A stretch of DNA of 21,933 bases from positions 1-21,933 of IMG/VR virus record IMGVR_UViG_3300025889_001074; one strand, 5' to 3'. A model generated the notes under the pieces. It was not told the origin of the DNA. It worked only from the letters and a program-made list of their open reading frames with translations, and made no database searches. This document shows, in pieces, positions 240-17,197 of this stretch. This DNA comes from a virus. Position numbers and translations under genes: made by a program. Each line of letters starts with the position of its first letter. Position 1 is the stretch's first letter.

Positions 240-2720
240 TTATTGGCATATAAGAACACCGCTTCCAAACTTAACATCTTTTGTAGCGGTATCATCAGCA
301 TCATCATAATCCCGACCTAACCGAACGAAACAATTATCAAAAGCAGCCATACTATCTAAATTCGTGGCTGTTATGGTAAATGTTGTTATGTTATCATCTG
401 TTGAATCTAAAGTTACTCCACCGCTTATTTCGTTTATCGTATCAAATGAAGCTGTAACAATTGACTCTCCACTGCTGACACACATAAAATCAAGCTCAGG
501 ATCAACTTTTGTTGAGACTTCTCCTTCGGTCGATTTTACACTTCCATGATACACACATGAAGTAGAAGGAGTTATTGTTGGTACAAAATGCCAACCTGCA
601 TATTCGTGAGCATCCGAGGCTGCAATATTACTCCAAAAACCGTCACCCCCCTCTATTTGCATTGTCCCATCAAGAATAAATGTTCCTGATATTTTTGCGG
701 ATTGTGCGCCCATTGGAAATACATAAGATGAACTTCCTCCGGTTCCTATTTGCGTGGCTGTAGTACCATTACCAACAAATAAAGCATCATCCCCTGTTTC
801 CCAACAAATACGCCCCTCTGTAATCTCGCCCGTACAATCTGTTTGCTGAGGCAATTCAAGCGTTCCATTTGTTGTATCTAAGACATCACCTGCTGTCATT
901 GTAATAGATGAACAATCACCACTTGCACAATCAAAAACGTCTGTGACGTCTCCTGACCCTGCGGCGGTTAAATCGTGATCAACTCCTGCATCATCTGTAA
1001 AATAAAGCGTGTTCCCTGCATCATTCTTAACCCATATCTGACCCAATCCAGCAACATCTGATTGAGCAGCGGATTGCTCTAAAAGAAAAATACTTCCACC
1101 GCCTCTAACCTCAAATACTGTATCTGCGCCTGAATTATCTAACATCTTAAACCCTACAGCATTTGAATCGCCATCATCAACAAAACTAGCTGAATAAGCA
1201 ATTTGGTCATTAGTTAAAAGTGTATCGTCATTAATAACTTGAACAGCCCCTGGATGAGAAGCTACATCTTGCCAATCCTGAAAAAGAATAACATTTTCAG
1301 TGTCATTATCTATTAATCTTAAAAAGAACACCTCATCATCATCATCTGCCGCATGAATTAAATCTAATAAAGAATTTTCATTTGAAGAAAGTGTATCTGT
1401 GTTACTAATAGTTAATGCTGTTTCAATACCTGCTGTTGCATCATCCAATGTTGTTGTTATTAATTGTTGTGTCCCTGCGAACGCCACCGTACCATCACCC
1501 GATGGATCACCTATTGTGTCCCAGTTAGAACCAGCCCCGCCAACTCCTAACTGAAAATCTGTTCCGGCATCATCTGTAAAATATAGCTCGTTAGGCGTAG
1601 CTGTATTTACCCATAACTGACCATACCCAGCAACATCATTATTAGCATCCGCTTGTTCCTGAATATAAATAACCCCCGTATCAACTTCAATCCCTGTTGC
1701 CTGAACTGTTCCGCTAACATGGATTGTATGTGTTAAATCAAACTCCTCATTCGTTTCATCCCACGAAATAATAGCGTCCGAACTAGCCCGATCTACAATT
1801 ATTAAATCTTCGTTCTGATCTAAACCAGAACCAACTATATAACCTGTTGTAGACTTAATAGTCCCTGTATTAGTTATTGTCTTAGTTGAATCTGTAAACT
1901 TAAATGTTGATGATCCGTCTATGGTTCCTGATGAAGTTAAATATAAAAACTCCGTTCCTGAAGCTGTCATATTTAGCGATATATCCACATCATCCGTAGG
2001 CGACTCAACAAGAACAAAATCTGTTCCATCAAAGTCTAAAGTTAATGTTCCCGATGTAATAGAAACTCCATCCTCTTCAATAGTTACCGTTGAACCACCG
2101 CCTCCTCCTCCACTATTATCATCACTACAGGATACATTACCGCTCGCATCTGTCGTTAAAGCACCTCCATTACTATTTCCCGTACAGTCTAAATCTGTTA
2201 TTGCTAATAACGTAGTAAATAACTTACCTGTCATCGTGTCCCCAGCGTTGGATACAAAAACATCCTCAATCTTAGAACCGCTTAACGTCCCATCCGCTAA
2301 ATCATCCAGGTCTGCATCATAGGCTTGTACGGTTGAACCTATATCCGTATCAAGAACAGCATCAGTGTCCGTACTAGCTGAATTAATCTCTGCCATTGTG
2401 TCCCATTCAGTATCCCTTGTTAGACCGGAGTTAATTATTACGTTAACTTCACCGGAAGGGCTTTCACTTGTATCAAAATCACTATCATTTAAATCTATAG
2501 TATCTAACGTACCTGAATGTGTTGTAACATCCCCTTCCTGAAGCGTAACGGCTCCGCTACCGCCTCCTCCTCCTCCTGACGTAGTAATAGGATTTGAAGC
2601 CGTTCCAATTTCATTTCCAGATCCATCAGTTAACACAACCGGAATAGCAGCGAAAGCCGGTACAGCCAAGAGTAAAAATAAGTATACTCCTAATGTTTTA
2701 ATCCATTTTTTAATTTTCAT
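240..2720 (-). CDS. Large fibre-like repeat protein with Sec signal peptide
   Basis: An 826-residue protein with TGAGG five bases before the ATG. Residues 1-24 (MKIKKWIKTLGVYLFLLLAV, then PAFA) are a strong Sec signal peptide. The mature part starts AIPVVLTDGSGNEIGTASNP and continues into a Gly run, then repeated beta modules typical of phage fibres. One repeated pair starts VTLQEGDV (58) and VTIEEDGV (212). Another starts IYIQEQADANNDVAGYGQLW (351) and IFLLEQSAAQSDVAGLGQIW (544). The sequence LTSSGTIDGSSTFKF (261-275) lies between the pairs. The C-terminal region (about 595-826) is cysteine-rich, including DCASGDC, DCTG, ICW, SCVYHG, MCVSS, NCFVR and LICQ, which is unusual for a cytoplasmically assembled fibre. 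A phage adhesin is likely; export is the odd feature. Confidence 0.82.
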   Translation of the reverse strand: MKIKKWIKTLGVYLFLLLAVPAFAAIPVVLTDGSGNEIGTASNPITTSGGGGGGSGAVTLQEGDVTTHSGTLDTIDLNDSDFDTSESPSGEVNVIINSGLTRDTEWDTMAEINSASTDTDAVLDTDIGSTVQAYDADLDDLADGTLSGSKIEDVFVSNAGDTMTGKLFTTLLAITDLDCTGNSNGGALTTDASGNVSCSDDNSGGGGGGSTVTIEEDGVSITSGTLTLDFDGTDFVLVESPTDDVDISLNMTASGTEFLYLTSSGTIDGSSTFKFTDSTKTITNTGTIKSTTGYIVGSGLDQNEDLIIVDRASSDAIISWDETNEEFDLTHTIHVSGTVQATGIEVDTGVIYIQEQADANNDVAGYGQLWVNTATPNELYFTDDAGTDFQLGVGGAGSNWDTIGDPSGDGTVAFAGTQQLITTTLDDATAGIETALTISNTDTLSSNENSLLDLIHAADDDDEVFFLRLIDNDTENVILFQDWQDVASHPGAVQVINDDTLLTNDQIAYSASFVDDGDSNAVGFKMLDNSGADTVFEVRGGGSIFLLEQSAAQSDVAGLGQIWVKNDAGNTLYFTDDAGVDHDLTAAGSGDVTDVFDCASGDCSSITMTAGDVLDTTNGTLELPQQTDCTGEITEGRICWETGDDALFVGNGTTATQIGTGGSSSYVFPMGAQSAKISGTFILDGTMQIEGGDGFWSNIAASDAHEYAGWHFVPTITPSTSCVYHGSVKSTEGEVSTKVDPELDFMCVSSGESIVTASFDTINEISGGVTLDSTDDNITTFTITATNLDSMAAFDNCFVRLGRDYDDADDTATKDVKFGSGVLICQ
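969..1091 (-). repeat. Internal fibre repeat, copy 2
   Basis: Encodes residues 544-584 of the 826-residue protein (IFLLEQ to DHDL), the partner of the copy at 1548-1670. The two copies have diverged to 23/41 identity, so this is an old duplication and not a recent slippage event. Confidence 0.85.
1548..1670 (-). repeat. Internal fibre repeat, copy 1
   Basis: Encodes residues 351-391 of the 826-residue protein (IYIQEQ to DFQL). It aligns without gaps to residues 544-584 with 23 of 41 identical, including the shared NELYFTDDAG / NTLYFTDDAG core. Such repeats are typical of beta-structured phage fibres. Confidence 0.85.
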
Positions 2721-2907: not shown

Positions 2908-3116
2908 GGCTCAACTCCTATATTTAATGGTTCTTCCATATCTATATCGTAATACTTATCCCATTTGTCATATTCATTCCACATATAATCTGTCCCATAA
3001 TGAACCGCGCGCGGACCAATTGTAAAGAATCCAAGAACTAATAAAGATGCTATCATGATTAATCCATCTTTAACAGGTTTACGTAATAAATAATAAAACT
3101 CACTTAAAATCCGCAT
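2895..3116 (-). CDS. Small single-pass membrane protein
   Basis: A 73-residue protein. I take the ATG at 3114-3116, which has AAAAGG at good spacing; the in-frame start two codons earlier is a TTG. The N terminus is basic (MRILSEFYYLLRKPVKDG), one membrane segment spans about 18-35 (DGLIMIASLLVLGFFTIG), and the C-terminal part is acidic and aromatic (YMWNEYDKWDKYYDIDMEE). The start lies 17 nt inside the giant gene. A small membrane protein next to a muramidase-bearing gene could be holin-like or an accessory to ejection, but holin identity cannot be shown from one membrane segment. No family is recognised. Confidence 0.72.
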   Translation of the reverse strand: MRILSEFYYLLRKPVKDGLIMIASLLVLGFFTIGPRAVHYGTDYMWNEYDKWDKYYDIDMEEPLNIGVEPCNA

Positions 3117-6100
3117 TTTCAAGCACCTTTTGAATGTCTGTATAAGTTTTGTCTATAGCAGGTTTATTTCTCTGTTCCTGAAAAACTCTTAAATTTTTAA
3201 AATGTACACGCGTAAGAGCATTATACGTAGGTTTCATGCGAGTTAACTTTTTAAGCTCTTCTTTTGTAATTAATCCTCCAGCCTTTCTTTGACTTAACAT
3301 TTCATACTCAGAAAAGAAATCATTAAGCTGACGTTTAGGATTTTCAGGTGACCTTATAATCAATGATCCTAAAACCGGCATATCTGCCATATCTTTTATT
3401 TCCTGCATTGTGAAATTTCTGTAAAATCCGCCCGTATATCCATTCATTAAAGAATCCAACTGAACCGGAGATATATTATCAAACCCTAAATCAGCCATTC
3501 CTTTAGCCATTGATACAGCTAATGTTGATGAATACCATTTCTTTCTCAAATGTTTAGGAAGATATTTCATCCCCTCAGATTCAATCGGAACTCCTAAAAA
3601 GTTTTTATTTTTAGCCACCTGTAAATAAGGGACAAACATTGTAGGAGTTGGATCAGGAATTTGAGTTATAAATGTTTGAAATAAGGATGTTACAGCTTTA
3701 GGATCTTTTTCCCATAAAGCATCAATAGCAGCTAAAGGAGTTGATATAAAAATAACTCCCCATTCAAACGGATTCGGAAGTCTGTAAACATAATCTCCTA
3801 CTTGAAAAAACTGATTACTGTATTTATAAGCTCTCGGAAGATTTTTATACCATTGTTCATCTTTATTTCTCCACCAACTAAGAAGGGCCGGAATCGTTAA
3901 CCATGCAACCCCCCTTACAATTGTACGAATAGGATTTGACTTAAATCTACGCCCGATCTTATCTACTGACTGTAAAGAAGCATTAAAGAAAGCCGCCGCT
4001 TCATTAATCCTTTTACCCCAAGCTCCATTTCGAGTGAAATTAACCGTAACATCTTGAGCCGCATTAAACGCATGTACAAAAGCATCCTGTTCATCCCAAT
4101 CAGGATTGTCTTTTAATGCTTTTTTATAAACACCTTCTAACTCAGCAATGCGCGGTGACAACTCACTTATTTGCATAAGAGCGCGCGCTGTATCAACCGG
4201 ATGTTTGGCTATTCTAAGGCTCTTACCGCCAAACCCTTTTAATTTCTCATCTAAGAGGATATCATAAGAATTCCATACCGCAGCTCGATCATACCCAACA
4301 AAACCGCTTAATTCGCCTCCTACGGCTTTAAAACGCCATGTTAAATCACCTTCCTTAGCTGATAAATCTTTATATAACCCTTGTACAGGATCAAAAGGAG
4401 TGGACATCTTTCTTTCTGAATTTAAAGTATATGTAAACGCATCTCTAAAAGGATTCCTGACTAATCCAAATGCAGGATTTAATTGAGTTGCACCTAACCT
4501 CAGCAAACGGGAAAACTTAGATAATACAGCTAAAACAGGTCCCCGTTCTAATATATCAACACCTGATAATGATCGATACAATTCTGGGTGAATTTCATAG
4601 AACCTTCTTTTTCCATTAATATGAATAGAAACAATGTTATCTTTACCGGAATAAAAAGGTTTTTGATTAAATATGGATAAAATAGCGTTCGGATCAAACT
4701 CAGAATCTTCGTTAACATCTGCGAGAGCTGCATTATCTAAAAGATCCCCAAGATCATGTTGATGTAAAGTTTCAATTAACCGTCCTAAAGATATATTGGT
4801 TACACCTTGAGGAGGTTGAACTTCAGTAATAAATCCACCAACACCTTCATTATTAGCCATTTCAGCAATTAATTTAGCCAAATGAAGCTTTTGAGCCTTA
4901 TTAATCATTTCAGTTGCTTGACCAATAAGACTTTCAATAGGATTAATAACCGGACGGCCTGAACCTTTTAACTTTTTCAACGGATCACTTTGATTAACTG
5001 TTCCCCCAGACCCTTTCTTAATAACCTGAACCTCATCAAGAAAAGCACGTTTAAATGGTATATAGATAGGATTCATAGCGCGTATTACTTTCGCATCATC
5101 TTCCGTTAATCCTCCGGCTCTAATAATCCAATCAAGCAGATGATTTGACCATATTGTTATATCATCCACCGCTTGATCCCACCCTTTATCTGCATATTTA
5201 TTTACTAAAAATTCAGTATCCCTTTGATCAAAACCGCTTTCTTTACCGCGAGACTCAATTAATAAAGCTCTTTTAGCAACAGCATAAGCAATAAATTTTT
5301 CCATATCATTGCGTGATACCGGTTCTAAAGCTTCAATAAGAGACTTTCCAACCGCATTTCCTGTTTCATCCACCGCCTTCTTTAAAACAAACGTACGTGC
5401 AATAGCCCCTGACTTCATCTTCATGTATGTGGCCATTTGGAAAGGATCTTCTGTAGGCTTTAATTTCTTTCCGCCGATCTGTCTTTGAATATCTTTAATC
5501 GTATATAGCTCATCAACAAACTTTGTAATAATAAACATTTTAGCGCGACGCAACTTATCTTTAACATTAAATATAGATTTTGTATGTTCTCCGCGGAAAT
5601 CAATCTGCTGAACAATACGATTCTCCGCCCCCTGTTCATACCATACACGATACTTATCTCTTAACTCATTAATATTCTTTGATAACTTAGGATTTGCAGG
5701 TAAATACTCATTGATGAAAAATTGATGGAATTTAGGAGCCTCTGTAGCTTCTAATCCCGTTTCAGTTAAATAGTGTCGCATATACTCTGCAAATCCCTCG
5801 TAATCTCTTCTTTGCGGGCTATAATCAAGATTCTTTAACTCTGTTTTAACTGCTTTAGATAAGTGACTCCATATTTTTTTGCCGGACCTAAGGGAAGTTG
5901 TTCCTTTTTCACGGGATTGATTATCAATCTCATGAGCAATCTCATGAGCAAGAACCTCCAACTCACCCCAAGTCTTTAATCTAATTAAAGCTTTATTCGT
6001 ATAATGAAGTCCGGCCGCCTTAACCATACGTTCCGTAGCTTTGCCTTTTATACTAACTTTAAAAGTATCTTCAGCAAACTTTATAATTTGTGTTTTATTA

Positions 6101-9012
6101 ATCGTTTTATCTGTAGATTTTTCAAGTTTTGGAGTCTTACCCCACTTCTGAGCCAGTAAAGCATCAGCCGGATTTTTAAAGGTATCCGCATCACCATCAT
6201 TAACACCATTAGCTCTAATGGATAATGCAGATCCTTTAGGTGATTTTCTTACGAGACTTTTCTTTTTCTCCCGAATGTCCCGATCTGATTTCTTTGTTTC
6301 GATTTGCTTATCTTTTTGCTTTTGGTTTTGTATCCCCGTCCTTTTGGCATTTGTTTTCTCCTTTTGTGCTTGTTCCCATATAGTGCGAAGTTGGTCATCT
6401 GTTTTAAATTCTGGTTTGCCTTTAAAGTAAACATATTCTGATCCAAGATAGAATGGATCATCAGAAAAACCTTCTTTATCTTCTGAATAAAGAAATTTCG
6501 CTGGAACATCTATAGACACAACATCTTCTACGCTTCCTGTATATGCTAAAGCAGAATCAAAGTCTACCGTAACAAAATCCCCATCCTTAATTTCTCTCTT
6601 TATTTTTTTAGATGTATCATCTATCCCTCTATAAATTGTTATTGTTTTTTCTGGATCGATGCCAAGATTAGATAAATTTGATTCTGGATCAACTGCATAT
6701 TTTCTCATGCTCGTATTATAATCGCCGTATTGACTTGCACTTCCAACAACCTTCTGAATAAAATCCTCTGCCGTATCATACTTCTTGGCTTGTTCAATAA
6801 GGCTCTCAGATACTTTCTTAGGCTCAATTAACGCTGAGGTAGGTATTGGTTCGTTTTCTGCAAAATCTTTCAATTCTGGCGCCTTAGAAGGCTCTACAGA
6901 GGGTTTTTGAGGTGTAATCGGAGGATTATCTGATATGCTTTTTGGTGTATAAAATAATTCACCTCTATTTTGAGAATCTATATCTTTTGAAAACCTTAAA
7001 TCTTGTATTGGAACCTTCTTTGTAATTATTCTTTTTGTTGGATTTAAGCTTATTGCATATTCCTTTCTGTATGTAACAAAATCATTTTCTACTAATTCAG
7101 TTTGTTTGCTATCTCCAACATTCCTATACACAGTTATTGTTCCATCTTTATTAGATATTGATTCAATAAACTCTGGGTTTATTTTTTGAACTTCTTGTAA
7201 TTCAATAGATTCTTTAGGTGTTTTTTGTTTTTCTTCCGGAATGATAATCTCTTCCTCTTGTGTCATTTGCTCTGTAATAGCGGTATCAATCTCATCAGCA
7301 TTATCAATAATCTCCTTAGCCACTGATTCAGCCGCAACTTCTATTTCTTGTGGATCAACCCCTAAAGCAACGGCTTGATTAAGCATCGCATCTGTGTGAA
7401 TACCTCGGCCGGAAGTCATTCCACCCATTATTCCACCCGATCCAGCCCCTGCAATAAAGGCTTCCACCATTCCTTCATGAAGCTGAATAGTATTATCATA
7501 TCCTAATTTGGCTATTAAATTAACCCAAGCAGATTGAGCAACCTCCTCAATCCCTTCTTGCGCAGCACCTATAGCAATATCTTTGACTAACTTACCTTCC
7601 CCACCCCTTATATATCGAGATAAAGGTAATTGTTCTAAAATAGTTGTTCCTGCCCCTGTCGCAAAAAATATCAAATTAGCTTTCTTTTTACTAGCTCCGG
7701 CTTCTCGCGCTTTTAAAAATTGATCCGGTGCTTCTAACCCAAAACCCAATGCAGCCGCACCGGCAAAAGGATTACCTGTAGACATACCAATTAATGTAGC
7801 AACACCTAAAGATGGAATTGACTCCATAACTAAAGCTTGGGCTCTTCTGAAAGAAGGATTTTCCAGGAAAGACCCTCCATAGATAGCAGGATCGCGCGTA
7901 TTAGATAACTCTTGTTGCGCTCGCTCAAAAAAACCTGATAATTTTTTACCTCCCTTAGAAATCTTATCTCCAATGTTCTCAATCATCTGTTGTTGACGTT
8001 CAACATTCTCACGTATGCCATTAATACGATCACGTGTCGCTTGAATATCTGCAGGATCAATACCTAAATCTTCCATCTGCTTAAATATCTCTTCATCATC
8101 TTCACGCGTACTTTCCATCTGAAGGCTTATAAATTCAGGTAGCGATTGTCCAAACCAATCAATAAGATTTGAGAATCCGGCATAAATATTATCAACACCT
8201 ATTGCTAAACTCTTAACATTTTCTCCCCCTTGATCCGCAACTCCTTCAAGAATACCCTTAGACACATCCCACACCTTAGAAGCTGTTTTTTCAATTACTG
8301 AAGGAGGAACAGGACGCATTAAATCCGCGGTTGTCCGGCCAATTGATTCTTCATTTTGTATTAAAGTACCGCCTGATAATAATTCTTCTGTTGTAAACCC
8401 ATATGAATCACCTTCAGAGGCTTCAGCAGTTGATACAGAAAATGGATTTAATGCCGATATATCAAATATTTCTTTAATCTCTTTAATACGGTTTTCCCAT
8501 CCCTTTTGAAAATCACCATACTTTTTAGGATTATTTTTAATTAAATTTGCGTTATGATTTTCTCTTTCAGTAATTATTTGTTTCAATAAAGTATTCTCAC
8601 CATTAACCCTAATATAATCCACAACGGCTTTCTGTGTCTTTGGCCCCATCAATCCGTCCGACTTTGTTCCAACAACCTTTTGAAGAGATTTAATAGCTGT
8701 TCTTGGGGATGCGTTAATTCCGAAGTCAAACAACACAACCGCTGTCTTATCTGGAAGCATATCTAACTTAGGTCTAACAAAGAATTCATTTTGATAGAAT
8801 TCTCTAGTTTCACCTTCCGTTAAATGAATTACATTCTTTAGGGGTAATTTTCTTTGCTTTGCGTAAGAATTATACGTTTGCTGTGTTATACCTCGGTTAG
8901 ATATTCCACTAGAACCAATTTCATTACGATCAATACCGCCTTCAAACAATAAAGACATATTTAAAGCTGTATCAAAGGTACCTGTTAATTCTTGAGTTTT
9001 AAAGGGTGCCAT
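3100..9012 (-). CDS. Giant multidomain virion/ejection protein: muramidase, ART-like x2, zincin, LPD38-like
   Basis: I choose the ATG at 9010-9012 (AAAAGGC upstream; 1,970 residues), not the in-frame extension to 9258 through the previous gene. Residues 1-184 match a GH108 N-acetylmuramidase with its peptidoglycan-binding end: LLFEGGIDRNE (proposed catalytic E24), GISNRGITQQTYN, then LFDFGINASPRTAIKSLQKV and DGLMGPKTQKAV. Residues about 396-538 are Gly/Ala-rich and hydrophobic, possibly membrane-inserting. Two ADP-ribosyltransferase-like modules follow (about 611-690, TITVYRNVGD; about 744-866, TITIYRGIDD with SEYVYF). Then a zincin (HEIAHE at 1023-1028, EGFAEYM at 1072-1078). The C-terminal part (about 1493-1863) resembles the LPD38 region of large polyvalent proteins. 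It is likely an ejected internal protein that opens peptidoglycan. Domain calls are by motif; the muramidase and the zincin motif are firmest. Confidence 0.85.
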   Translation of the reverse strand: MAPFKTQELTGTFDTALNMSLLFEGGIDRNEIGSSGISNRGITQQTYNSYAKQRKLPLKNVIHLTEGETREFYQNEFFVRPKLDMLPDKTAVVLFDFGINASPRTAIKSLQKVVGTKSDGLMGPKTQKAVVDYIRVNGENTLLKQIITERENHNANLIKNNPKKYGDFQKGWENRIKEIKEIFDISALNPFSVSTAEASEGDSYGFTTEELLSGGTLIQNEESIGRTTADLMRPVPPSVIEKTASKVWDVSKGILEGVADQGGENVKSLAIGVDNIYAGFSNLIDWFGQSLPEFISLQMESTREDDEEIFKQMEDLGIDPADIQATRDRINGIRENVERQQQMIENIGDKISKGGKKLSGFFERAQQELSNTRDPAIYGGSFLENPSFRRAQALVMESIPSLGVATLIGMSTGNPFAGAAALGFGLEAPDQFLKAREAGASKKKANLIFFATGAGTTILEQLPLSRYIRGGEGKLVKDIAIGAAQEGIEEVAQSAWVNLIAKLGYDNTIQLHEGMVEAFIAGAGSGGIMGGMTSGRGIHTDAMLNQAVALGVDPQEIEVAAESVAKEIIDNADEIDTAITEQMTQEEEIIIPEEKQKTPKESIELQEVQKINPEFIESISNKDGTITVYRNVGDSKQTELVENDFVTYRKEYAISLNPTKRIITKKVPIQDLRFSKDIDSQNRGELFYTPKSISDNPPITPQKPSVEPSKAPELKDFAENEPIPTSALIEPKKVSESLIEQAKKYDTAEDFIQKVVGSASQYGDYNTSMRKYAVDPESNLSNLGIDPEKTITIYRGIDDTSKKIKREIKDGDFVTVDFDSALAYTGSVEDVVSIDVPAKFLYSEDKEGFSDDPFYLGSEYVYFKGKPEFKTDDQLRTIWEQAQKEKTNAKRTGIQNQKQKDKQIETKKSDRDIREKKKSLVRKSPKGSALSIRANGVNDGDADTFKNPADALLAQKWGKTPKLEKSTDKTINKTQIIKFAEDTFKVSIKGKATERMVKAAGLHYTNKALIRLKTWGELEVLAHEIAHEIDNQSREKGTTSLRSGKKIWSHLSKAVKTELKNLDYSPQRRDYEGFAEYMRHYLTETGLEATEAPKFHQFFINEYLPANPKLSKNINELRDKYRVWYEQGAENRIVQQIDFRGEHTKSIFNVKDKLRRAKMFIITKFVDELYTIKDIQRQIGGKKLKPTEDPFQMATYMKMKSGAIARTFVLKKAVDETGNAVGKSLIEALEPVSRNDMEKFIAYAVAKRALLIESRGKESGFDQRDTEFLVNKYADKGWDQAVDDITIWSNHLLDWIIRAGGLTEDDAKVIRAMNPIYIPFKRAFLDEVQVIKKGSGGTVNQSDPLKKLKGSGRPVINPIESLIGQATEMINKAQKLHLAKLIAEMANNEGVGGFITEVQPPQGVTNISLGRLIETLHQHDLGDLLDNAALADVNEDSEFDPNAILSIFNQKPFYSGKDNIVSIHINGKRRFYEIHPELYRSLSGVDILERGPVLAVLSKFSRLLRLGATQLNPAFGLVRNPFRDAFTYTLNSERKMSTPFDPVQGLYKDLSAKEGDLTWRFKAVGGELSGFVGYDRAAVWNSYDILLDEKLKGFGGKSLRIAKHPVDTARALMQISELSPRIAELEGVYKKALKDNPDWDEQDAFVHAFNAAQDVTVNFTRNGAWGKRINEAAAFFNASLQSVDKIGRRFKSNPIRTIVRGVAWLTIPALLSWWRNKDEQWYKNLPRAYKYSNQFFQVGDYVYRLPNPFEWGVIFISTPLAAIDALWEKDPKAVTSLFQTFITQIPDPTPTMFVPYLQVAKNKNFLGVPIESEGMKYLPKHLRKKWYSSTLAVSMAKGMADLGFDNISPVQLDSLMNGYTGGFYRNFTMQEIKDMADMPVLGSLIIRSPENPKRQLNDFFSEYEMLSQRKAGGLITKEELKKLTRMKPTYNALTRVHFKNLRVFQEQRNKPAIDKTYTDIQKVLENADFK

Positions 9013-9874
9013 TCTTTTGCCTTTTTTCAAACTCTTTCTTAGGAAGCCATGTATCATTCCCGATATAAATAAACGGCTTACCTTGAAAAACACGTTCTTC
9101 TTCATTCCTGAACCCAAAATCATCCGGTCCGAACTTTTCAAGAATCTTCTCTTCAATATCAGGGAATCTTGTAGCATAGTTTGGTCCAAACTTTCTTGCA
9201 GCTCTATCTCGAGCCTCTTTCTCTGTCCTAATAGGGAACTCAATCCCTTGTATCTCAAAATTACCTGTCTCTAATTGACCTAAAAATTTATCTTTATCAG
9301 AAACTTTATCTAACCCTGAACTCGATTTAATCTCACGATCCGATCTCTTATTAAATTGATCCACGATATCATCAACCCCTAAATCATAATCTGTTCCATG
9401 CTCAATCTTCAACTTTAATAAACTATCCACCTTATCTTCATTTTTAGCTGTTGAACTCATTATTGTCTTAACACCATCAACAAACTTTGTTCTATTTTCA
9501 CGTTTTTGTTGAGCAATTTTTTGTCGAGAAGCATCTGCCAATGTTTGAGATAGGTTTTGTAAACCGCCTGATATATCCGGTCCTGTACGATTAACAAGCA
9601 AATTAGTCCCTCCAATATTAGCTGTCTCAACCTGGTTGTTACCAGAACCAGATACACTTTGAGCTAATTCAGAGATAACTTGTAATAATCCTCCTCCGTT
9701 AGAGGGTTGTACTCCGCCTCCTTGACTTTCTGCTTGGTTCGGCGCTCCTCCTTGATTGATAATAATATTAACCAAATCTTGCAAGGAAGTTGCCTGCGTA
9801 TTACCTCCAAATATATTAGCACCTACACCTCCTCCTGGCTTAACAGATCCATCTTGGTTAGGTAAAAACGTCAT
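8999..9874 (-). CDS. Candidate internal / ejection protein B
   Basis: A 291-residue protein with AAGGAG five bases before its ATG and a 9-nt gap from the gene before. Residues 1-110 are low-complexity, rich in Gly, Asn and Gln (GGAPNQAESQGGG, GSGNNQVETANIGG). A charged helical part follows (110-200, e.g. ADASRQKIAQQKRENRTKF). The C-terminal domain is mixed and has the repeated phrases ARKFGPNY and EKFGPDDFGF. It has no cysteines, signal peptide or membrane segment. Its last 14 nt overlap the start of the giant multidomain gene, so it is probably made with it as part of the internal virion proteins. No family recognised. Confidence 0.7.
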   Translation of the reverse strand: MTFLPNQDGSVKPGGGVGANIFGGNTQATSLQDLVNIIINQGGAPNQAESQGGGVQPSNGGGLLQVISELAQSVSGSGNNQVETANIGGTNLLVNRTGPDISGGLQNLSQTLADASRQKIAQQKRENRTKFVDGVKTIMSSTAKNEDKVDSLLKLKIEHGTDYDLGVDDIVDQFNKRSDREIKSSSGLDKVSDKDKFLGQLETGNFEIQGIEFPIRTEKEARDRAARKFGPNYATRFPDIEEKILEKFGPDDFGFRNEEERVFQGKPFIYIGNDTWLPKKEFEKRQKNGTL

Positions 9875-9883
9875 GTTATCTCC

Positions 9884-10576
9884 TTATTTATCAAAAATTC
9901 CACCAATATTTGCACCGGCTTCAGCTCCTAATAACGGATTCCCATAAGGAAGTCCAGCTAATCCACCTATACCAAGCCCAATTAATGATCCAATAGGATT
10001 CTTATTCGGCACATTAACCTTAGATTTAAAAGGAAGCGTCGTTTGATATTGCTGCTGCGCGAGCTGTTGTTGCTGAGTATTATGATTACTAGCTAAACCT
10101 AAAAGATTTAAAATAGCTCCGGTATCCGCATTGGCTACATTAGACACTCCGGCAAGTTGACTAAGCTTCTGATTTTCATCTGATACCTGAAGATTCTCTC
10201 TTTGTAAAATAGCCTCAGTCGCTAATTTAGAAATTAAATCTGTTATCTGATCACCATAAAACTTAGAACCTCCCAACCCTCTATCAAACAAACTATTTTC
10301 CAAAGAAGGTAAGGCTATCCTTGAAGATTCCTTAAAGAAAGTATCTTCAAACTCCTGCAAACTAGCCTCTCTATTAGCCGTTGTTACACCAATACTTTTA
10401 AGAATACTTTTCTGTAAAGCCTGAACCTCAGCCCGATCTAAAGCCGCTTGTTCAGATTCGTTGAATGAGTAAGCATTATCCGCAAAATTAACACTTCCAA
10501 AAGGTGTATTAAAATCAACCTTTGGAGGCGGTGTAAATTTCGGTATCTCTACTGTTGGTTGTGAATTCTTCCCCAT
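9884..10576 (-). CDS. Candidate internal / ejection protein A
   Basis: A 230-residue protein whose ATG (10574-10576) has a strong AGAGGAG seven bases upstream, inside the GNAT gene. The N terminus is proline-rich (IPKFTPPPKVDFNTPFG). A helical middle follows (residues about 38-140, with YSFNESEQAALDRAEVQALQ and LISKLATEAILQRENLQ), then a Gln-rich stretch (NTQQQQLAQQQYQ, about 166-178). The tail is hydrophobic and Gly-rich (PIGSLIGLGIGGLAGLPYG, 194-212, then GAEAGANIGGIF). Phage ejection proteins often combine helical segments with Gly-zipper membrane-active ends. It lies in the block leading to the giant ejection-like protein. Family not recognised; role inferred from composition and order. 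Confidence 0.7.
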   Translation of the reverse strand: MGKNSQPTVEIPKFTPPPKVDFNTPFGSVNFADNAYSFNESEQAALDRAEVQALQKSILKSIGVTTANREASLQEFEDTFFKESSRIALPSLENSLFDRGLGGSKFYGDQITDLISKLATEAILQRENLQVSDENQKLSQLAGVSNVANADTGAILNLLGLASNHNTQQQQLAQQQYQTTLPFKSKVNVPNKNPIGSLIGLGIGGLAGLPYGNPLLGAEAGANIGGIFDK

Positions 10577-11135
10577 TGTTCCACTCCTCTTTTAATATGG
10601 CCATCATAATGATATCATCCTGAATATCCCCATTACGAAAAGCTTTTCTTCTAACACCTTCCTGCTTAAACCCTAATCTTCTATGTATCGCGTATCCTAA
10701 TCTATTACTCTTAATCACATCACCATCAATTCTATCAAACTCAAACTCATTAAAAGCAGCGGTAATTAATGTTCGAGTTGCATCCTCTGTAGGCGTTAAA
10801 TCTCCTCTTTTAAATTTCTTTACAAACTTCTTTGTAAACTCAGGATCAATCATCCCTGCAATACTGCAGGAAAAAGAATTAACATCAAAAAAATAAATAA
10901 ATCCAACTCTTTTAGCATCCTTTCCTTTTGTCATAACTGTCCATATAAACATCTGATATCCGCCTAAAAGTGCTTTTATATATAATTTAGCCTCCTGATC
11001 CGTCATTTTACATAAACTGAATTTACCCATATACCCCTTTTTATCGCCTCGATGAAGATCAATAAAATATTGAAAATCATTATCCATGAAAGGAAATAAA
11101 ACTGTTTTCTTACCATAAAATACATTCGTTCTCAT
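10515..11135 (-). CDS. GNAT-family N-acetyltransferase
   Basis: A 206-residue protein. The C-terminal half carries the RimJ/RimL-like GNAT ending: a helix and strand before it (LITAAFNEFEFDRIDGDV), then SNRLGYAIHRRLGFKQEG (143-160) and GDIQDDIIMMAILKEEW (169-185). This corresponds to the CoA-binding helix and the GF..EG signature. The N-terminal half is less typical but includes the central strand FIYFFDVNSFSCSIAG. Similar acetyltransferases occur within phage structural regions, with unknown targets. The ATG overlaps the collar-fibre stop (ATGA) and has only a distant SD, so it is probably coupled. The last 62 nt overlap the start of the next gene. Possible targets are virion or host proteins. 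Confidence 0.83.
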   Translation of the reverse strand: MRTNVFYGKKTVLFPFMDNDFQYFIDLHRGDKKGYMGKFSLCKMTDQEAKLYIKALLGGYQMFIWTVMTKGKDAKRVGFIYFFDVNSFSCSIAGMIDPEFTKKFVKKFKRGDLTPTEDATRTLITAAFNEFEFDRIDGDVIKSNRLGYAIHRRLGFKQEGVRRKAFRNGDIQDDIIMMAILKEEWNNGEEFTTNSRDTEIYTASKG

Positions 11136-11980
11136 GTCTTTATAATTACTCCTGCTGCGTGTGAAGGCTGTATATTGTTATGCGCGCCTCCACCTCCGGT
11201 TGATCCTGTACTCTTATTTCCTGTTGTCGCAGAAGCTGAATGATATATATCGCCAGCACCACCACCATTAGTAGTTGTTTGAGTCGCAATTGTATGAGTA
11301 TGAGCCGGCATTTCACTTTCCGATAATGTATGTGTTTCCGTCCCTACTTCACCCCCTAAACTATCAGCATTTGCATCTGTAACAATATTTTTAGGTGTAC
11401 CTCCCAAATTATCTAAACCTATAAATGTACGCCCTCTTAAATCCGGTAAATTAAATGTCGTAGACCCGTCCCCAACTCCATAGGTTGTACTGACTAAAGA
11501 AAAAAGTGTGGCATATGTTGTACGCGAAACGGCTGATCCATCACATAAAAGCCATCCAGAAGGAGCTGAAGTACCTGCATAAGGCATCATTGCTCCGGCC
11601 GGTATAAATTGATCTGTTGATTGAGATAATACAATCCATCCATCATTTGCTTTATTACGCACATTAATAACATTTTCTGATCCAGAGGTATCAATCCATA
11701 TATCTCCTACTTGAGGATTTGACATAACCGTAGATGATGAATGAACAACTCCTAAAATCACCCATTCAGAGTTGCGATATACCTTAAGAAAATCATTAGT
11801 GCTATCGTACCAAACCTGACCTTCAATAGGAGAAGAAGGAGCTGAACCGGATACAATAACTTTCTGGTTCAATTTTGTAATAACATTATCTAATTCACCA
11901 TCCACCCTAGAGGCTGTTATAGGAACACCTCCATTTCGATCATCTACAAAGTTATATTGTCTTACTGAGGTCGTTGACAT
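11132..11980 (-). CDS. Tail fibre with phage collar domain
   Basis: A 282-residue protein without a signal peptide. Residues 7-74 are the shared RQYN module (see the copy at 13314-13517), followed by a short beta linker (DIWIDTSGS...WIVL). Residues about 125-190 are a phage tail collar domain: FIPAGAMMPYAG, SGWLLCDGSAVSRTTYATLF, TTFNLPDLRGRTFIGLD. The C terminus has MPAHTHT and GGGGAHNNIQPSHAAGVIIKT, the usual ending of collar-type adhesins. Such proteins form the receptor-binding fibre or its tip. No clear SD is visible before the ATG, so translation probably depends on the gene ending 2 nt upstream. Its stop overlaps the GNAT start by 4 nt (ATGA). Confidence 0.9.
   Translation of the reverse strand: MSTTSVRQYNFVDDRNGGVPITASRVDGELDNVITKLNQKVIVSGSAPSSPIEGQVWYDSTNDFLKVYRNSEWVILGVVHSSSTVMSNPQVGDIWIDTSGSENVINVRNKANDGWIVLSQSTDQFIPAGAMMPYAGTSAPSGWLLCDGSAVSRTTYATLFSLVSTTYGVGDGSTTFNLPDLRGRTFIGLDNLGGTPKNIVTDANADSLGGEVGTETHTLSESEMPAHTHTIATQTTTNGGGAGDIYHSASATTGNKSTGSTGGGGAHNNIQPSHAAGVIIKT
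11759..11962 (-). repeat. Fibre N-terminal module, copy 2 (paralogous to 13314-13517)
   Basis: Encodes residues 7-74 of the collar-domain fibre (RQYNFVDD to SEWV). It is 46/68 identical to copy 1, so the two fibre genes share a duplicated N-terminal module with different C-terminal domains. The module is probably for attachment or trimerisation (inference). Confidence 0.9.
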
Positions 11981-11982
11981 AA

Positions 11983-12297
11983 TTATTTAATATTTGCAAA
12001 GTTAGTATTACCACCTAATTCAGCTTTATTAAGCTTCATATGATAACAATTTCCGTTAACATGAGTTTCTTCACAATTTCTTATAGATTCTGAACCTAAA
12101 GGACCCCACTCTCCGGCAGGATACTTAACGATTGCAGCATAAAGGGTAGCTCCAACAATAGCTCCAACTACAGCTATCTCAAGACTCGAGGCTCCTAATA
12201 AAGATGTTGCTTCAATAACATTAGCCTCACTCATCTTTGGTGTAACAGCCATACATAATGCTAAAGCTATAAACATTGTTAATATAAGTTTTTTCAT
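11983..12297 (-). CDS. Small exported protein with membrane segment and Cys pair
   Basis: A 104-residue protein with AGGAGG four bases before its ATG; the SD overlaps the preceding stop. Residues 1-25 (MKKLILTMFIALALCMAVTP, then KMSEA) look like a Sec signal peptide with probable cleavage after SEA. Residues about 40-57 (EIAVVGAIVGATLYAAIV) form a hydrophobic, Gly/Ala-rich membrane segment. The C-terminal part is polar and has two cysteines (C75, C84) that could pair in the periplasm. LALC is a poor lipobox because of Leu at -1. It lies between two fibre genes, so it may be a fibre partner, a superinfection-exclusion factor or a spanin-like protein. None of these is shown by the sequence. Confidence 0.75.
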   Translation of the reverse strand: MKKLILTMFIALALCMAVTPKMSEANVIEATSLLGASSLEIAVVGAIVGATLYAAIVKYPAGEWGPLGSESIRNCEETHVNGNCYHMKLNKAELGGNTNFANIK

Positions 12298-12305
12298 AAT
12301 TCCTC

Positions 12306-13598
12306 CTATTTAAACCCGATTATTATAAATCCATCCCCACCTGTTCCACCTGCACCGCTTGCAATCCGTCCGGCTCCACCGCCTCCGGCAGCTATTCCTC
12401 CATTAGATCCATTAGATGAATTACCCTCTTCTCCACCAACTCCATAGTAAGATGATCCCCCGGCTCCTCCTGCATTAGCTGTTCCAGATTGATCCCCACC
12501 TGAACCTGATCCAGTTGTTGCTATTCCGCCAACAGTAATTGTCGTTGCATCCATTGATCCTGCTGAATGACCTGCTCCACCAAGATCTGTTGCGTCTGCG
12601 CCACCATTAAGCCCTTTATTACCCCCCTGAGCTGTTAATGTATAATTAGATGGAGCCGTATCTCCGACAAAAGTACTATCCCCACCATCAACACCATTTG
12701 CTGCCCCAGAACCACCTGCACCACCACTACCAATTGTGTAAGTATAAGTATTTCCTGCAGTAATATCCATCACATGACCTATAATGCAATCACCACCTGC
12801 ACCACCCGATCCACCGCAATTCGTTCCGCAATCACCACCTCCGCCTCCTCCACCCCCTCCAGCACACATCGTTATAACCGCTTTAGATGTCCCAGATGGA
12901 GCATCAATTGTTCCATTAGAAGTAAATATAGAATCTCCTGCCGATGCCCAAACCCCATCACCTCTCCAAAATGTCGTTGTAGAAGCATTTGTACCACTAT
13001 CAAAATGTGTAATAGCAAGTGTTCCTGTAATACCCGTATTAAGGTCTACCTGCTCGTATAAAGGATTATTATTGCTTCCTTGGTTACTTAGATACCTTGA
13101 CTCGTTTGTGTCCTTATTTAGGGCTTCCAGCGTGTTTGTGCCTGTAACATAAAGTAAATCACCCTGAACAAGCGTTATTGATGAATCAATATCTAATACC
13201 GTTGACCATGAAGATCCATTGTAAAGCTGAAGAAGATCATCATCTGTATTATAAAATATATCCCCATCTTGAGGCGTTGCTACATATGATGTTCCAATAT
13301 GAAGAACAACGCCAACCCATTCATTATTGCGATATACTTTAAATACATCATTAACTGAATCAAACCACATCATCCCCTCAATAGGCGTAGATGGAGCGGT
13401 CCCTTTAATTAAAACCTTCTGATTTAATTTAGTGATAATCGCATCAAACTCTTCATCCATCTTTAAAGCTGTAATAGGTATACCGTTGTTCCTATCATCC
13501 ACCCAATTATATTGCCGCGAAGCTTCAGTTGAAGATTGAGCCGGTACACACATTAAGAGTATTGTTAATAAACAAAATAATCCGATTCTTCTAAACAT
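12306..13598 (-). CDS. Glycine-rich tail-fibre-like protein with Sec signal peptide
   Basis: I place the start at the ATG at 13596-13598 (AAGGAAA upstream), giving 430 residues; an in-frame start at 13655 would sit inside the previous gene. Residues 1-20 (MFRRIGLFCLLTILLMCVPA) form a clear signal peptide, with likely cleavage after VPA. Residues 28-95 are a module starting RQYNWVDDRNNGIPIT that is 46/68 identical to the same module in the fibre at 11132-11980. A beta-repeat linker follows. From about 244 to the end is a glycine-rich domain (nine consecutive glycines, repeated GGAGG, terminal GFIIIGFK) with four cysteines (C245, C257, C261, C271), similar to Gly-rich phage adhesin tips. A signal peptide on a fibre protein is unexpected. 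It may be exported to the periplasm or cell surface. Confidence 0.82.
   Translation of the reverse strand: MFRRIGLFCLLTILLMCVPAQSSTEASRQYNWVDDRNNGIPITALKMDEEFDAIITKLNQKVLIKGTAPSTPIEGMMWFDSVNDVFKVYRNNEWVGVVLHIGTSYVATPQDGDIFYNTDDDLLQLYNGSSWSTVLDIDSSITLVQGDLLYVTGTNTLEALNKDTNESRYLSNQGSNNNPLYEQVDLNTGITGTLAITHFDSGTNASTTTFWRGDGVWASAGDSIFTSNGTIDAPSGTSKAVITMCAGGGGGGGGGDCGTNCGGSGGAGGDCIIGHVMDITAGNTYTYTIGSGGAGGSGAANGVDGGDSTFVGDTAPSNYTLTAQGGNKGLNGGADATDLGGAGHSAGSMDATTITVGGIATTGSGSGGDQSGTANAGGAGGSSYYGVGGEEGNSSNGSNGGIAAGGGGAGRIASGAGGTGGDGFIIIGFK
13314..13517 (-). repeat. Fibre N-terminal module, copy 1 (paralogous to 11759-11962)
   Basis: Encodes residues 28-95 of the glycine-rich fibre, running from RQYN to NNEWV. 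It aligns without gaps to the second copy with 46 of 68 residues identical. It lies directly after the signal peptide, so the export signal appears to have been added to, or lost from, an otherwise shared module. Confidence 0.9.
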
Positions 13599-13920
13599 TA
13601 GAATTTCCTTTTTCAATAATCCATAAATTAGATAAAAGACACCAAATGTTCTCATGCTGATACATAGTCATACCTTTTTTAAGCGTCCACACTTCTTTAT
13701 CATCCGGTAAAACTTCATGTTTTAAATCATATGGAATATCGGATGTTTTACTTATCAACCTCTCCAAGCGCGGTACTAACACATACTCTTCATCCGGCAA
13801 TATTCCTTTAAATTGCATATATTGATTTGACTTGGTCAAATAAATATTATCATACATAGTTAGCTTCTGATCCCAACCATTCTTCTTTAAATTAATAGCC
13901 ATCTTTGAATATTCATGCAT
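13591..13920 (-). CDS. Small unknown protein before the fibre genes
   Basis: A 109-residue protein beginning one base inside the upstream gene, with GAGGAG eleven bases before the ATG. It has alternating strand-like stretches (LTMYDNIYLTKSNQYMQF, EYVLVPRLERLI, EVWTLKKGMTMYQHENIWCL) and a single cysteine. No domain is recognised. Its last 8 nt overlap the start of the exported glycine-rich fibre gene, so the two are translationally linked. It could be a small tail or fibre-assembly factor, but the sequence does not show this. Confidence 0.75.
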   Translation of the reverse strand: MHEYSKMAINLKKNGWDQKLTMYDNIYLTKSNQYMQFKGILPDEEYVLVPRLERLISKTSDIPYDLKHEVLPDDKEVWTLKKGMTMYQHENIWCLLSNLWIIEKGNSNV

Positions 13921-15678: not shown

Positions 15679-16410
15679 TTAACTCAATATTGGGTTTTGG
15701 GTGAATATACCGCCTCCACCATTATTTTCCATTTGTTCAACAACAATATTATCATCTAATAACTCAGGGGAACCGTAAAGCACTTTAAACTTATTCAAAC
15801 TTCCTTCTAAATTCTGTGACCGATTACCATAAACTTTACTGTAATAATTAGCCGCTTCTTGATTGTTCTTATAATGAAGTATTTTATACGTTACTAAATC
15901 AGCTAACATCGTTAAATCAAAACCTTCCGGTATCCAACATGTTCCAGCCGGTGTATCTGTTGAAAGAATAGTTGGTATTTTCCAATATCTATATTTAATC
16001 AATTTACCTGCTGCATTTGCATCTGGAATTAAATACGGCCAAAAGAAATCTTCCCACTCTGTAACAATAGACGGGATTCCTGTATCTGTTTGAATTGGAT
16101 AGTTACGATCAAACTTTTGAGGCGTAATATATGTAATAGGCTTTTGGTTATCATATTTAAAAGACTTTTCATCAAAATCCTGAACATCTGAAGCTTTAGC
16201 ATACGTTGATGTTCCGGCTCCTAACGTCATTGATCCAGTAGCCTCTAAAGGTTTATATTTGTTTTCTGAAGCAAGATCATAAATAGCCTCATTTATGGTA
16301 TTAAAAACTAAAAGCGATAACCCTGCTAAAGATGTTAATACCGATTTATCCGGTTCTCCTAAATTATTTAATACCTTGTTAACGAGTTGTAACGCGGATG
16401 ATTTTGCCAT
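15679..16410 (-). CDS. Head-tail adaptor (T7 gp11 / P22 gp4-like)
   Basis: A 243-residue protein. The N terminus (SSALQLVNKVLNNLGEP, followed by a helix ending AIYDLASENKY) matches the helical start common to podophage adaptor proteins that dock below the portal. A beta-rich middle follows, including KYRYWKIPTILSTDTPAG. A helix pair then ends with TMLADLVTYKILHYKNNQEAA and YYSKVYGNRSQNLE, as in the tail tubular protein A family. The C terminus is low-complexity with a Gly run. In T7 and P22 this ring joins portal and nozzle. It lies directly before the nozzle-like gene with a 2-nt gap, the same order as T7 gp11-gp12. The family assignment is by pattern and order. Confidence 0.72.
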   Translation of the reverse strand: MAKSSALQLVNKVLNNLGEPDKSVLTSLAGLSLLVFNTINEAIYDLASENKYKPLEATGSMTLGAGTSTYAKASDVQDFDEKSFKYDNQKPITYITPQKFDRNYPIQTDTGIPSIVTEWEDFFWPYLIPDANAAGKLIKYRYWKIPTILSTDTPAGTCWIPEGFDLTMLADLVTYKILHYKNNQEAANYYSKVYGNRSQNLEGSLNKFKVLYGSPELLDDNIVVEQMENNGGGGIFTQNPILS

Positions 16411-16772: not shown

Positions 16773-17197
16773 AATACTTTCCTTTGTTTTAGTTCCTTAA
16801 AAAGCTCCATTGATCGATGTTCAATCATTTCTTCTTCCATCTTAGCTTTTTTAATCATAGCTTCATCACACAAATGATGGTATTCACTACAATGATCACT
16901 GCCGCAATGTAAAGGCTCTATTACATTATCCACATTGTTAGGATCAATATTCCCTGACATTATCCATTTCTGAATATGCATTTGATTCCAATGGAACCAA
17001 TCTCCGCAATAAATACACCTCTTATCACCATACAACTTACCTTTAAGCGCGAACCTATGACCGCAAAACCTTCCATCCCCTTCAATTTCTGTAGATTTAC
17101 TCTCTTTTGGCCGTGAATCTATTAAATGACCATTCAAGTCTAAATCAAGAAAAGCTTTATTCCTATTATGGCCACGACGGCCTCGCGCTATGGACAT
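16769..17197 (-). CDS. Cys/His-rich putative zinc-binding protein
   Basis: I choose the ATG at 17195-17197, which shares one base with the upstream stop (TAATG) and has GAGG eight bases before it. An in-frame TTG at 17236 is a weaker choice. The 142-residue protein has a basic N terminus (ARGRRGHNRNK). It then has C45/H47, CIYC (C61, C64), a tryptophan-rich linker, and a cluster HCGSDHCSEYHHLC (97-110). This spacing suggests one or two structural zinc sites. It is reminiscent of treble-clef or HNH-type folds, but I cannot point to an intact HNH catalytic motif. Residues 111-142 form a charged helix. Function unknown; it may belong to the glycosyltransferase/methyltransferase cassette. Confidence 0.7.
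   Translation of the reverse strand: MSIARGRRGHNRNKAFLDLDLNGHLIDSRPKESKSTEIEGDGRFCGHRFALKGKLYGDKRCIYCGDWFHWNQMHIQKWIMSGNIDPNNVDNVIEPLHCGSDHCSEYHHLCDEAMIKKAKMEEEMIEHRSMELFKELKQRKVL

What the first reader, a model, noticed from the sequence alone, without database searches (positions are those of the whole stretch)
3100..9012. One 1,970-residue protein joins a muramidase to toxin-like and polyvalent-protein domains
Seen: GH108-type motifs at residues 1-184, a hydrophobic Gly/Ala-rich region at about 396-538, two modules beginning with Y-R motifs (629-630 and 794-796), HEIAHE at 1023-1028, and a long C-terminal region resembling LPD38. Known: large polyvalent proteins in phages and conjugative elements string together enzyme domains thought to act on entering the host, and virion muramidases open the peptidoglycan. 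Inference: this protein is ejected, cuts the wall through its own first domain, inserts in or crosses the membrane, and delivers ART-like and protease modules. The order wall-cutter, membrane region, effectors, virion-anchoring end would make it a self-contained delivery machine.
Basis: partly seen in the sequence, partly recalled or inferred. Interest (0 to 1): 0.77.

Follow-up and report, generated by a model that had tools for sequence, protein, structure and literature searches.

The report
Giant phage entry protein with swappable cargo
A short-tailed phage makes one 1,970-residue protein that very probably rides in the virus particle, cuts the bacterial wall with its front end and carries two toxin-like enzyme modules into the cell on a conserved carrier; related phages use that carrier with quite different cargo.

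Summary
The 1,970-aa ORF (minus strand, 3100-9012) has a GH108 muramidase, PG_binding_3 and LPD38 by Pfam, all above cut-off. The zincin and ART readings, which Pfam misses, gained support from homologues and AlphaFold models. The zincin keeps HExxH, Asp and Glu and best matches the PPEP-1/lethal-factor fold (Z 7.5). The two Y-R modules belong to an unnamed phage-wide domain family (at least 299 viral contigs). A profile built without the window protein finds both (E 4.6e-6 and 3.8e-13), and every structural match listed for the second is an ART-superfamily chain, though at low Z (4.3 or less).

The gene sits where T7, P22 and N4-type phages encode their last ejection protein. The closest precedent is phage JC1 gp69: N-terminal lytic transglycosylase, enzymatic cargo, C-terminal LPD38, similar neighbourhood, and shown in virions by mass spectrometry. 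So the plan is known, and this is a new variant of it.

New here: the zincin-LPD38 half is a conserved carrier. Two relatives about 84% identical there have unrelated inserts upstream (RadC-type versus another), and the zincin occurs only in enlarged forms (15/22 versus 0/42). 'Self-contained' is overstated; packaging and enzyme activity are untested for this phage.

The parts
3100..9012 (-). 1,970-aa polyvalent protein P0001 (proposed gp16-position ejection protein)
   Evidence: Uninterrupted ORF with ATG and ribosome-binding site; LPD38 at C-terminus; gene order shared with LPD38 podophages
8710..8952 (-). GH108 muramidase domain, residues 21-101; catalytic-type Glu24 in FEGG
   Evidence: Pfam E 9e-12; PDB relatives 7dnp, 2ikb align with the EGG glutamate conserved
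8488..8697 (-). PG_binding_3 domain, residues 106-175
   Evidence: Pfam E 3.5e-7, above cut-off
7408..7962 (-). Gly/Ala-rich membrane-type module, residues 351-535, similar to the N-terminal region of N4 virion RNA polymerase
   Evidence: PHROG phrog_2206 E 1.8e-6; hhalign 185 columns, score 41.9 against at most 23.0 in 60 shuffles
6937..7197 (-). ART-like module 1, residues 606-692 (YR629-630, DFVT, GELFY)
   Evidence: Profile built without P0001: E 4.6e-6; alignments
6415..6774 (-). ART-like module 2, residues 747-866 (YRG794-796, GDFVT, SEYVYF)
   Evidence: Profile built without P0001: E 3.8e-13; AlphaFold2 model with a confident core; all 31 structural matches listed are ART-superfamily chains, Z 4.3 or less
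5683..6099 (-). Zincin metallopeptidase domain, residues 972-1110; HEIAHEID 1023-1030 and EGFAE about 1072-1076
   Evidence: Motif conserved in relatives; AlphaFold2 model residues 37-175 match PPEP-1 and lethal-factor zincins, Z up to 7.5
3103..5520 (-). LPD38-containing C-terminal carrier region, residues 1165-1970 (Pfam LPD38 1720-1865)
   Evidence: Pfam E 7.1e-28; 45-46% identity to L033/L035 over 946-1970; 78 BFVD matches at E<=0.001, the named ones mostly large polyvalent phage proteins; no significant PDB match
8999..9874 (-). 291-aa protein in the gp15-like (second ejection protein) position
   Evidence: Position only; no detectable sequence similarity to L033/L035 counterparts
9884..10576 (-). 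230-aa protein with Gly-rich C-terminus in the gp14-like (first ejection protein) position
   Evidence: Position and size only
10515..11135 (-). GNAT acetyltransferase-like protein that heads the block
   Evidence: Pfam Acetyltransf_3 E 3.7e-4, below cut-off; phrog_4470 E 1.5e-5; acetyltransferases are annotated in the same position in HTVC034P, Lederberg and JC1

Best explanation
P0001 is the last and largest ejection (internal virion) protein of a short-tailed phage, built as a carrier with cargo. Proposed sequence of events: it is packaged in the head [inferred from JC1 gp69]; on infection it passes, at least partly unfolded, through the tail; its GH108 domain opens peptidoglycan [family shown, activity inferred]; the Gly/Ala-rich module inserts at the inner membrane, as the N4 virion RNA polymerase N-terminal region does [similarity shown, insertion inferred]; the C-terminal LPD38 region, shared by all relatives, does the packaging and translocation job [inferred from conservation]; the zincin next to the cargo cuts the chain so that the two ART-like modules are freed in the cytoplasm, where they modify host targets early in infection [fold and motifs shown or suggested, action inferred].
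For: GH108 and LPD38 above cut-off. Gene order tail tube - GNAT - small protein - mid-size protein - giant LPD38 protein in HTVC034P, Lederberg, ct8d5349 and L002, and in 14 of 37 distinct loci with enough upstream DNA as the full GNAT/gp14/gp15-like series, with 12 more partial. JC1 gp69, with an N-terminal transglycosylase and C-terminal LPD38 in a similar neighbourhood, is in virions with 51 unique peptides (PMC9144972). Cargo swapping: L033 and L035 share 71% identity over the first ~509-536 residues and 84% over the last ~1,058, with unrelated middles of about 680 (RadC) and 150 residues. Zincin in 15 of 22 long and 0 of 42 short distinct carriers, with HExxH kept in all 15. The ART-like family also sits ahead of LPD38 in an independent phage, L259. 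N4 virion RNA polymerase shows the same layout: membrane region, polymerase cargo, HExxH domain, helical C-terminal part, ejected (PMC12633501).
Against: No proteomics for this phage. The two proteins placed as gp14/gp15-like have no detectable homology to known ones. ART structural scores are low (Z 4.3 or less; Foldseek E above 1). L259 carries ART-like cargo without an HExxH motif and 7 of 22 long carriers lack a zincin hit, so release by the zincin is not general. Length and zincin counts are not corrected for shared ancestry. No strong transmembrane helix is visible.
Confidence: 0.62

Rival explanations
1. The zincin matures the protein before packaging, as proposed for P1 DdrB, so only a fragment is packaged and the cargo and wall-cutter part company before infection.
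For: Iyer et al. infer self-cleavage for P1 DdrB, whose packaged form is a processed ~76-kDa fragment (PMC5512222). Zincin position between cargo and carrier and its presence only in long forms fit equally well.
Against: N4 vRNAP, with an HExxH domain in the same position, is packaged unprocessed (PMC5512222). The N-terminal wall-cutter would be useful for entry only if packaged.
Confidence: 0.2
2. The Y-R modules are not enzymes but binding or structural modules with an ART-like fold.
For: Low structural Z, no NAD assay, short spacing between R and E, module 1 has YRN rather than YRG.
Against: Y-R, D-x-V-T and E are near-invariant over 51 diverse members, as expected of an active site; every listed structural match is an ART-superfamily chain.
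Confidence: 0.25
3. The GH108 domain is the phage's lysis endolysin fused to a virion protein and serves exit, not entry.
For: GH108 relatives are mostly annotated as endolysins and no other endolysin was recognised in this 21.9-kb fragment.
Against: The record is a fragment, so absence says nothing; JC1 carries a different wall-cutter at the same N-terminal place and a separate lysis module.
Confidence: 0.1
4. The fusion is a metagenome assembly chimera joining a GH108 gene to an LPD38 gene.
For: The N-terminal half has no counterpart in the closest relatives.
Against: One open frame without stops, steady base composition along the gene, and precedents of wall-cutter plus LPD38: JC1, an SLT domain in one of 21 carriers scanned and LT_GEWL-named proteins among the BFVD matches.
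Confidence: 0.04

Closest known systems
Burkholderia phage JC1 gp69 / Bcep22 'DarB-like' giant protein (PMC9144972)
   Same: N-terminal peptidoglycan hydrolase, enzymatic middle, C-terminal LPD38; acetyltransferase and virion proteins a few genes upstream; detected in virions
   Different: 4,515 aa; lytic transglycosylase instead of GH108; methylase/helicase cargo and LPD3 instead of ART-like modules; the JC1 sequence itself was not compared here
N4 virion RNA polymerase gp50 (PMC12633501)
   Same: Membrane-type N-terminal region (detectable similarity), cargo, HExxH domain, large helical C-terminal region; last of three ejection-protein genes; ejected
   Different: Cargo is an RNA polymerase; no wall-cutting domain; no significant similarity found between its C-terminal part and the LPD38 region
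T7 gp16
   Same: N-terminal peptidoglycan hydrolase, membrane-inserting, last of the gp14-gp15-gp16 series (PMC8954989)
   Different: Transglycosylase rather than GH108; no cargo enzymes or zincin in the passages read; direct sequence comparison not run
Phage-type polyvalent proteins of Iyer et al. 2017 (PMC5512222)
   Same: LPD38, lysozyme, ART and MPTase domains combined in late-gene proteins
   Different: GH108 as the wall-cutter and the YRG/GD[FW]VT/E modules were not seen in the passages read; their ARTs use an H-Y-D active site
Metagenomic relatives L033 and L035
   Same: 45-46% identity over residues 946-1970; same upstream layout; L035 has a homologous tail collar protein
   Different: No GH108 and no YRG modules; other cargo, RadC/JAB in L033

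Membership tests
LPD38 phage-type polyvalent protein | LPD38 domain above the curated cut-off | tested here: met
   98.4 bits against 27, E 7.1e-28
LPD38 phage-type polyvalent protein | Unrelated enzymatic domains in one polypeptide | tested here: met
   GH108 plus zincin motif and fold
LPD38 phage-type polyvalent protein | Encoded among virion genes | tested here: met
   Capsid, adaptor, tail and collar genes in the window
LPD38 phage-type polyvalent protein | Packaged and delivered into the host | not testable with these tools
   Only a precedent: JC1 gp69 in virions
GH108 muramidase | Family profile and conserved EGG glutamate | tested here: met
   45.8 bits against 21.2; Glu24 aligned in 7dnp and 2ikb
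GH108 muramidase | Peptidoglycan cleavage | not testable with these tools
   Needs an assay
Zincin MPTase of polyvalent proteins | HExxH, Glu in the second helix, Asp three residues after HExxH | tested here: met
   HEIAHEID and EGFAE, conserved in BA3, Vibrio 1.211 and VvAW1
Zincin MPTase of polyvalent proteins | Zincin fold | tested here: met
   PPEP-1/Zmp1 and lethal factor lead the list, Z 7.0-7.5 over 113-130 residues, unrelated rows at 6.5 or less; Z under 8, so the motif carries part of the weight
Zincin MPTase of polyvalent proteins | Conserved His at the end of strand 2 (one clade) | tested here: inconclusive
   A His is present in P0001 (GLHY) but not in the phage relatives aligned
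ART superfamily | ART fold | tested here: inconclusive
   All 31 listed chains are ART-superfamily, but best Z 4.3 and Foldseek E above 1
ART superfamily | Conserved catalytic-type residues | tested here: inconclusive
   Y-R, GD[FW]VT and E are near-invariant and resemble an R-S/T-E set; not mapped onto an NAD site
ART-PolyVal (Tox-ART-HYD2) | H-Y-D active site and family profile | tested here: not met
   The first strand carries Y-R, not His; no Pfam hit at E up to 10
T7 gp16-like ejection protein | Last gene after gp14- and gp15-like genes | tested here: inconclusive
   Position fits, but the two neighbours show no detectable homology
T7 gp16-like ejection protein | Sequence or structural homology to gp16 | not tested
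   No direct comparison with T7 gp16 was run
N4-type virion RNA polymerase | Single-subunit RNA polymerase domain | tested here: not met
   No RNA polymerase domain among the Pfam or PHROG hits to the middle of P0001; only the N-terminal region of the family is matched

The most novel reading that the evidence does not exclude
LPD38 proteins are a general virion-to-cytoplasm carrier: a conserved zincin-LPD38 half onto which phages swap cargo (ART-like pairs, RadC-type, methylase-helicase, pyrophosphatase and others), with a swappable wall-cutter in front and the zincin freeing the cargo; and the YRG/GD[FW]VT/E domain is a large, unnamed family of phage-delivered ADP-ribosyltransferases.
Probability: 0.4. 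Interest if true: 0.72.

Novelty: new variant of a known kind. Interest (0 to 1): 0.55.

Why it matters
Phages must act on the host in the first moments of infection, before their genes are expressed. A conserved carrier with interchangeable cargo would explain how many phages deliver different enzymes with one machinery, and it makes the function of LPD38, a domain known only by name, directly testable. The unnamed ART-like family is common in phages and would be a new set of early host-takeover enzymes if active.

Tried and rejected
Pfam, NCBIfam, PHROG and PADLOC on the whole protein: no ART-PolyVal or MPTase-PolyVal. Scan of viral contigs with the cargo-zincin block alone: no relative. tblastn of each Y-R module against phages: only matches at E 4 or worse. 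PDB sequence search with the modules: nothing meaningful. Homology of the LPD38 region to the N4 polymerase C-terminal part: not found (hhalign probability under 5%). Homology of the 230- and 291-aa neighbours to L033/L035 counterparts: not detected. L035 and L033 cargo do not match the ART-like profile. PDB fold search with the LPD38 region: no significant match; T7 gp16 is not among the rows listed. Genome-contig scan gave one relative only, on a Planctomycetota MAG contig. Literature searches for virion proteomics of phages that BLAST to this region found none. Assembly chimera considered and thought unlikely. An in-script control failed and was repeated.
Full report
What is there. The finding is a real gene on the minus strand of the window: ATG at 9012, stop ending at 3100, 1,970 residues, with an AAAAGG-like ribosome-binding site. 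The window is the whole of a 21,933-base virus record, so the rest of the phage is unknown. Around it lie a major-capsid-like protein (19501-20448; NCBIfam N4-gp56 family below cut-off, phrog_1357 E 9e-10), an SU10-type adaptor (15679-16410), tail and collar proteins, a GNAT-like protein and two small proteins. This looks like the structural module of a short-tailed phage.

Domains of the protein. Pfam finds GH108 (21-101), PG_binding_3 (106-175) and LPD38 (1720-1865), all above cut-off. The GH108 glutamate of the FEGG motif is conserved against solved relatives. No library recognises an ART or a metallopeptidase domain in the middle.

The zincin. tblastn found Thalassomonas phage BA3 and Vibrio and Shewanella phages aligned from residue 988 onward. 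The alignment keeps HE[IM]AH, an Asp three residues later and EGFAE, the signature Iyer et al. describe for a widespread phage-type MPTase (PMC5512222). An AlphaFold2 model of residues 936-1970 (pLDDT 78.6, pTM 0.72) matches PPEP-1/Zmp1 and lethal-factor zincins at model residues 37-175 with Z 7.0-7.5, ahead of unrelated rows. The resemblance is to the fold only.

The two Y-R modules. Each alone has no BLAST relative in phages. A DNA pattern for Y-R-G, a short gap and G-D-x-V-T returned 99 stretches, many in frame with fixed spacing. Not all of these are one family: a second, collagen-like tail-protein group also fits the pattern and was left out. From the relevant ones I built an alignment, and a wider scan returned 299 viral contigs encoding relatives, 80 kept. 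A profile built from nine relatives only, without the window protein, finds module 1 at E 4.6e-6 and module 2 at E 3.8e-13; after iteration the values are 1.9e-5 and 3e-9. Across 51 members the Arg is invariant, and Y, G-D, V-T and E are at 90% or more. Nine members scanned against Pfam gave nothing credible. An AlphaFold2 model of module 2 has a confident core. Foldseek gave no significant PDB match, but on realignment every one of the 31 chains listed is an ART-superfamily protein (KptA/Tpt1, TreX and TreTu toxins, CNFy, PARPs, ExoS), with Z 4.3 at best. The list is drawn from Foldseek's own top chains, so this is suggestive and no more. I read it as a divergent ART family, distinct from ART-PolyVal, whose active site is H-Y-D.

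The membrane-type region. Residues 351-535 align with the N-terminal region of N4-type virion RNA polymerases (PHROG E 1.8e-6; hhalign 185 columns, score 41.9, reversed sequence 22.0, best of 60 shuffles 23.0). In N4 the isolated N-terminal domain enters membrane nanodiscs, with membrane helices predicted at 224-278 (PMC12633501), which overlaps the start of the matched stretch. Hydropathy in P0001 itself is modest.

Carrier and cargo. Using LPD38-region alignments I gathered 108 relatives. The closest, L033 and L035, are 45-46% identical to P0001 from residue 946 to the end, and no match to its first 900 residues was found in them. L033 and L035 are 84% identical to each other over the zincin-LPD38 end and 71% over the first ~500 residues, but their middles (683 and 147 residues) are unrelated, with a RadC-type JAB domain in L033. 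Among 64 distinct carriers, 15 of 22 longer than 1,500 aa have the zincin, all 15 with HExxH, against 0 of 42 shorter ones (Fisher p 1e-9, not corrected for ancestry). Cargo recognised by Pfam in 21 full-length carriers includes methylase, helicase, pyrophosphatase, FtsK-gamma and RadC, and one SLT wall-cutter. BFVD structural matches to the carrier include proteins named methylase, RelA/SpoT, LT_GEWL and zeta toxin. In L259 the same ART-like family sits ahead of LPD38 without an HExxH motif.

Gene order and virion evidence. In HTVC034P, Lederberg, ct8d5349 and L002 the order is tail tube B, acetyltransferase, internal virion protein B-like, a mid-size protein, the LPD38 giant, tail fibre. The window has GNAT-like, 230 aa, 291 aa, giant; the two small proteins have no detectable homology to the counterparts tried, so their role is positional inference. 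Of 37 distinct loci with at least 3.5 kb upstream, 14 show the full acetyltransferase/gp14/gp15-like series and 12 part of it. In Burkholderia phage JC1 an acetyltransferase (gp63) and virion proteins gp64, gp67 and gp68 precede gp69, of 4,515 aa with an LT-like domain at 80-192, methylase and helicase regions, LPD3 and LPD38 at 4195-4401, and gp69 is found in CsCl-purified virions with 51 unique peptides (PMC9144972). This is the direct precedent for a wall-cutter-to-LPD38 giant in the particle.

Mechanism. By analogy with T7 gp16 (PMC8954989) and N4 vRNAP, the protein would be packaged, ejected through the tail with smaller partners, cut peptidoglycan with its N-terminus, insert at the inner membrane and present its remaining domains to the cytoplasm. 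The zincin could then release the ART-like cargo. Shown here: domain family membership, conservation, cargo exchange, gene position. Inferred: packaging, ejection, insertion, cleavage, and enzyme activity.

Novelty. Polyvalent proteins combining lysozyme, ART, MPTase and LPD38 were described in 2017, and JC1 supplies an experimentally packaged example, so the overall plan is known. New are this domain combination (GH108 with a tandem of unnamed ART-like modules), the ART-like family itself, and the evidence for a conserved carrier with exchanged cargo. Iyer et al. [quoted passage not shown] I did not make an exhaustive literature search for the YRG family, so its novelty rests on the absence of a Pfam model and is provisional.

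Noticed in passing
window 240-2720 (-), 11983-12297 (-), 12306-13655 (-): Three proteins in the tail region begin with signal-peptide-like sequences (for example MKIKKWIKTLGVYLFLLLAVPAFA), which is unusual for virion proteins and unexplained.
   Followed up: no
window 11132-11980 and 12306-13655 (-): Two tail proteins share a similar N-terminal segment (QYN[FW]VDDRN.G[VI]PITA...), then diverge into a collar domain and a glycine-rich domain; looks like a partial duplication.
   Followed up: no
window 17197-17988 and 17939-18976 (-): A methyltransferase-like and a glycosyltransferase-like reading frame lie between the capsid and tail genes; by eye only, they may modify a glycan.
   Followed up: no
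L033, protein residues 930-1041 (locus ORF 5672-12421): A RadC-type JAB domain on a phage LPD38 carrier, though RadC was described as confined to polyvalent proteins of conjugative elements.
   Followed up: partly
L118, L129, L135, L139, L141, L144, L163, L186, L210-L289 and others: A large phage domain family with Y-R-G, GD[FW]VT and E-x-G-Y motifs and no Pfam model; ORFs run up to about 2,000 aa, five of 106 with two copies.
   Followed up: partly
window 19501-20448 (-): The capsid-like protein matches the N4-gp56 major capsid family below cut-off, hinting at a distant tie to N4-type phages beside the N-terminal similarity to their virion polymerase.
   Followed up: no
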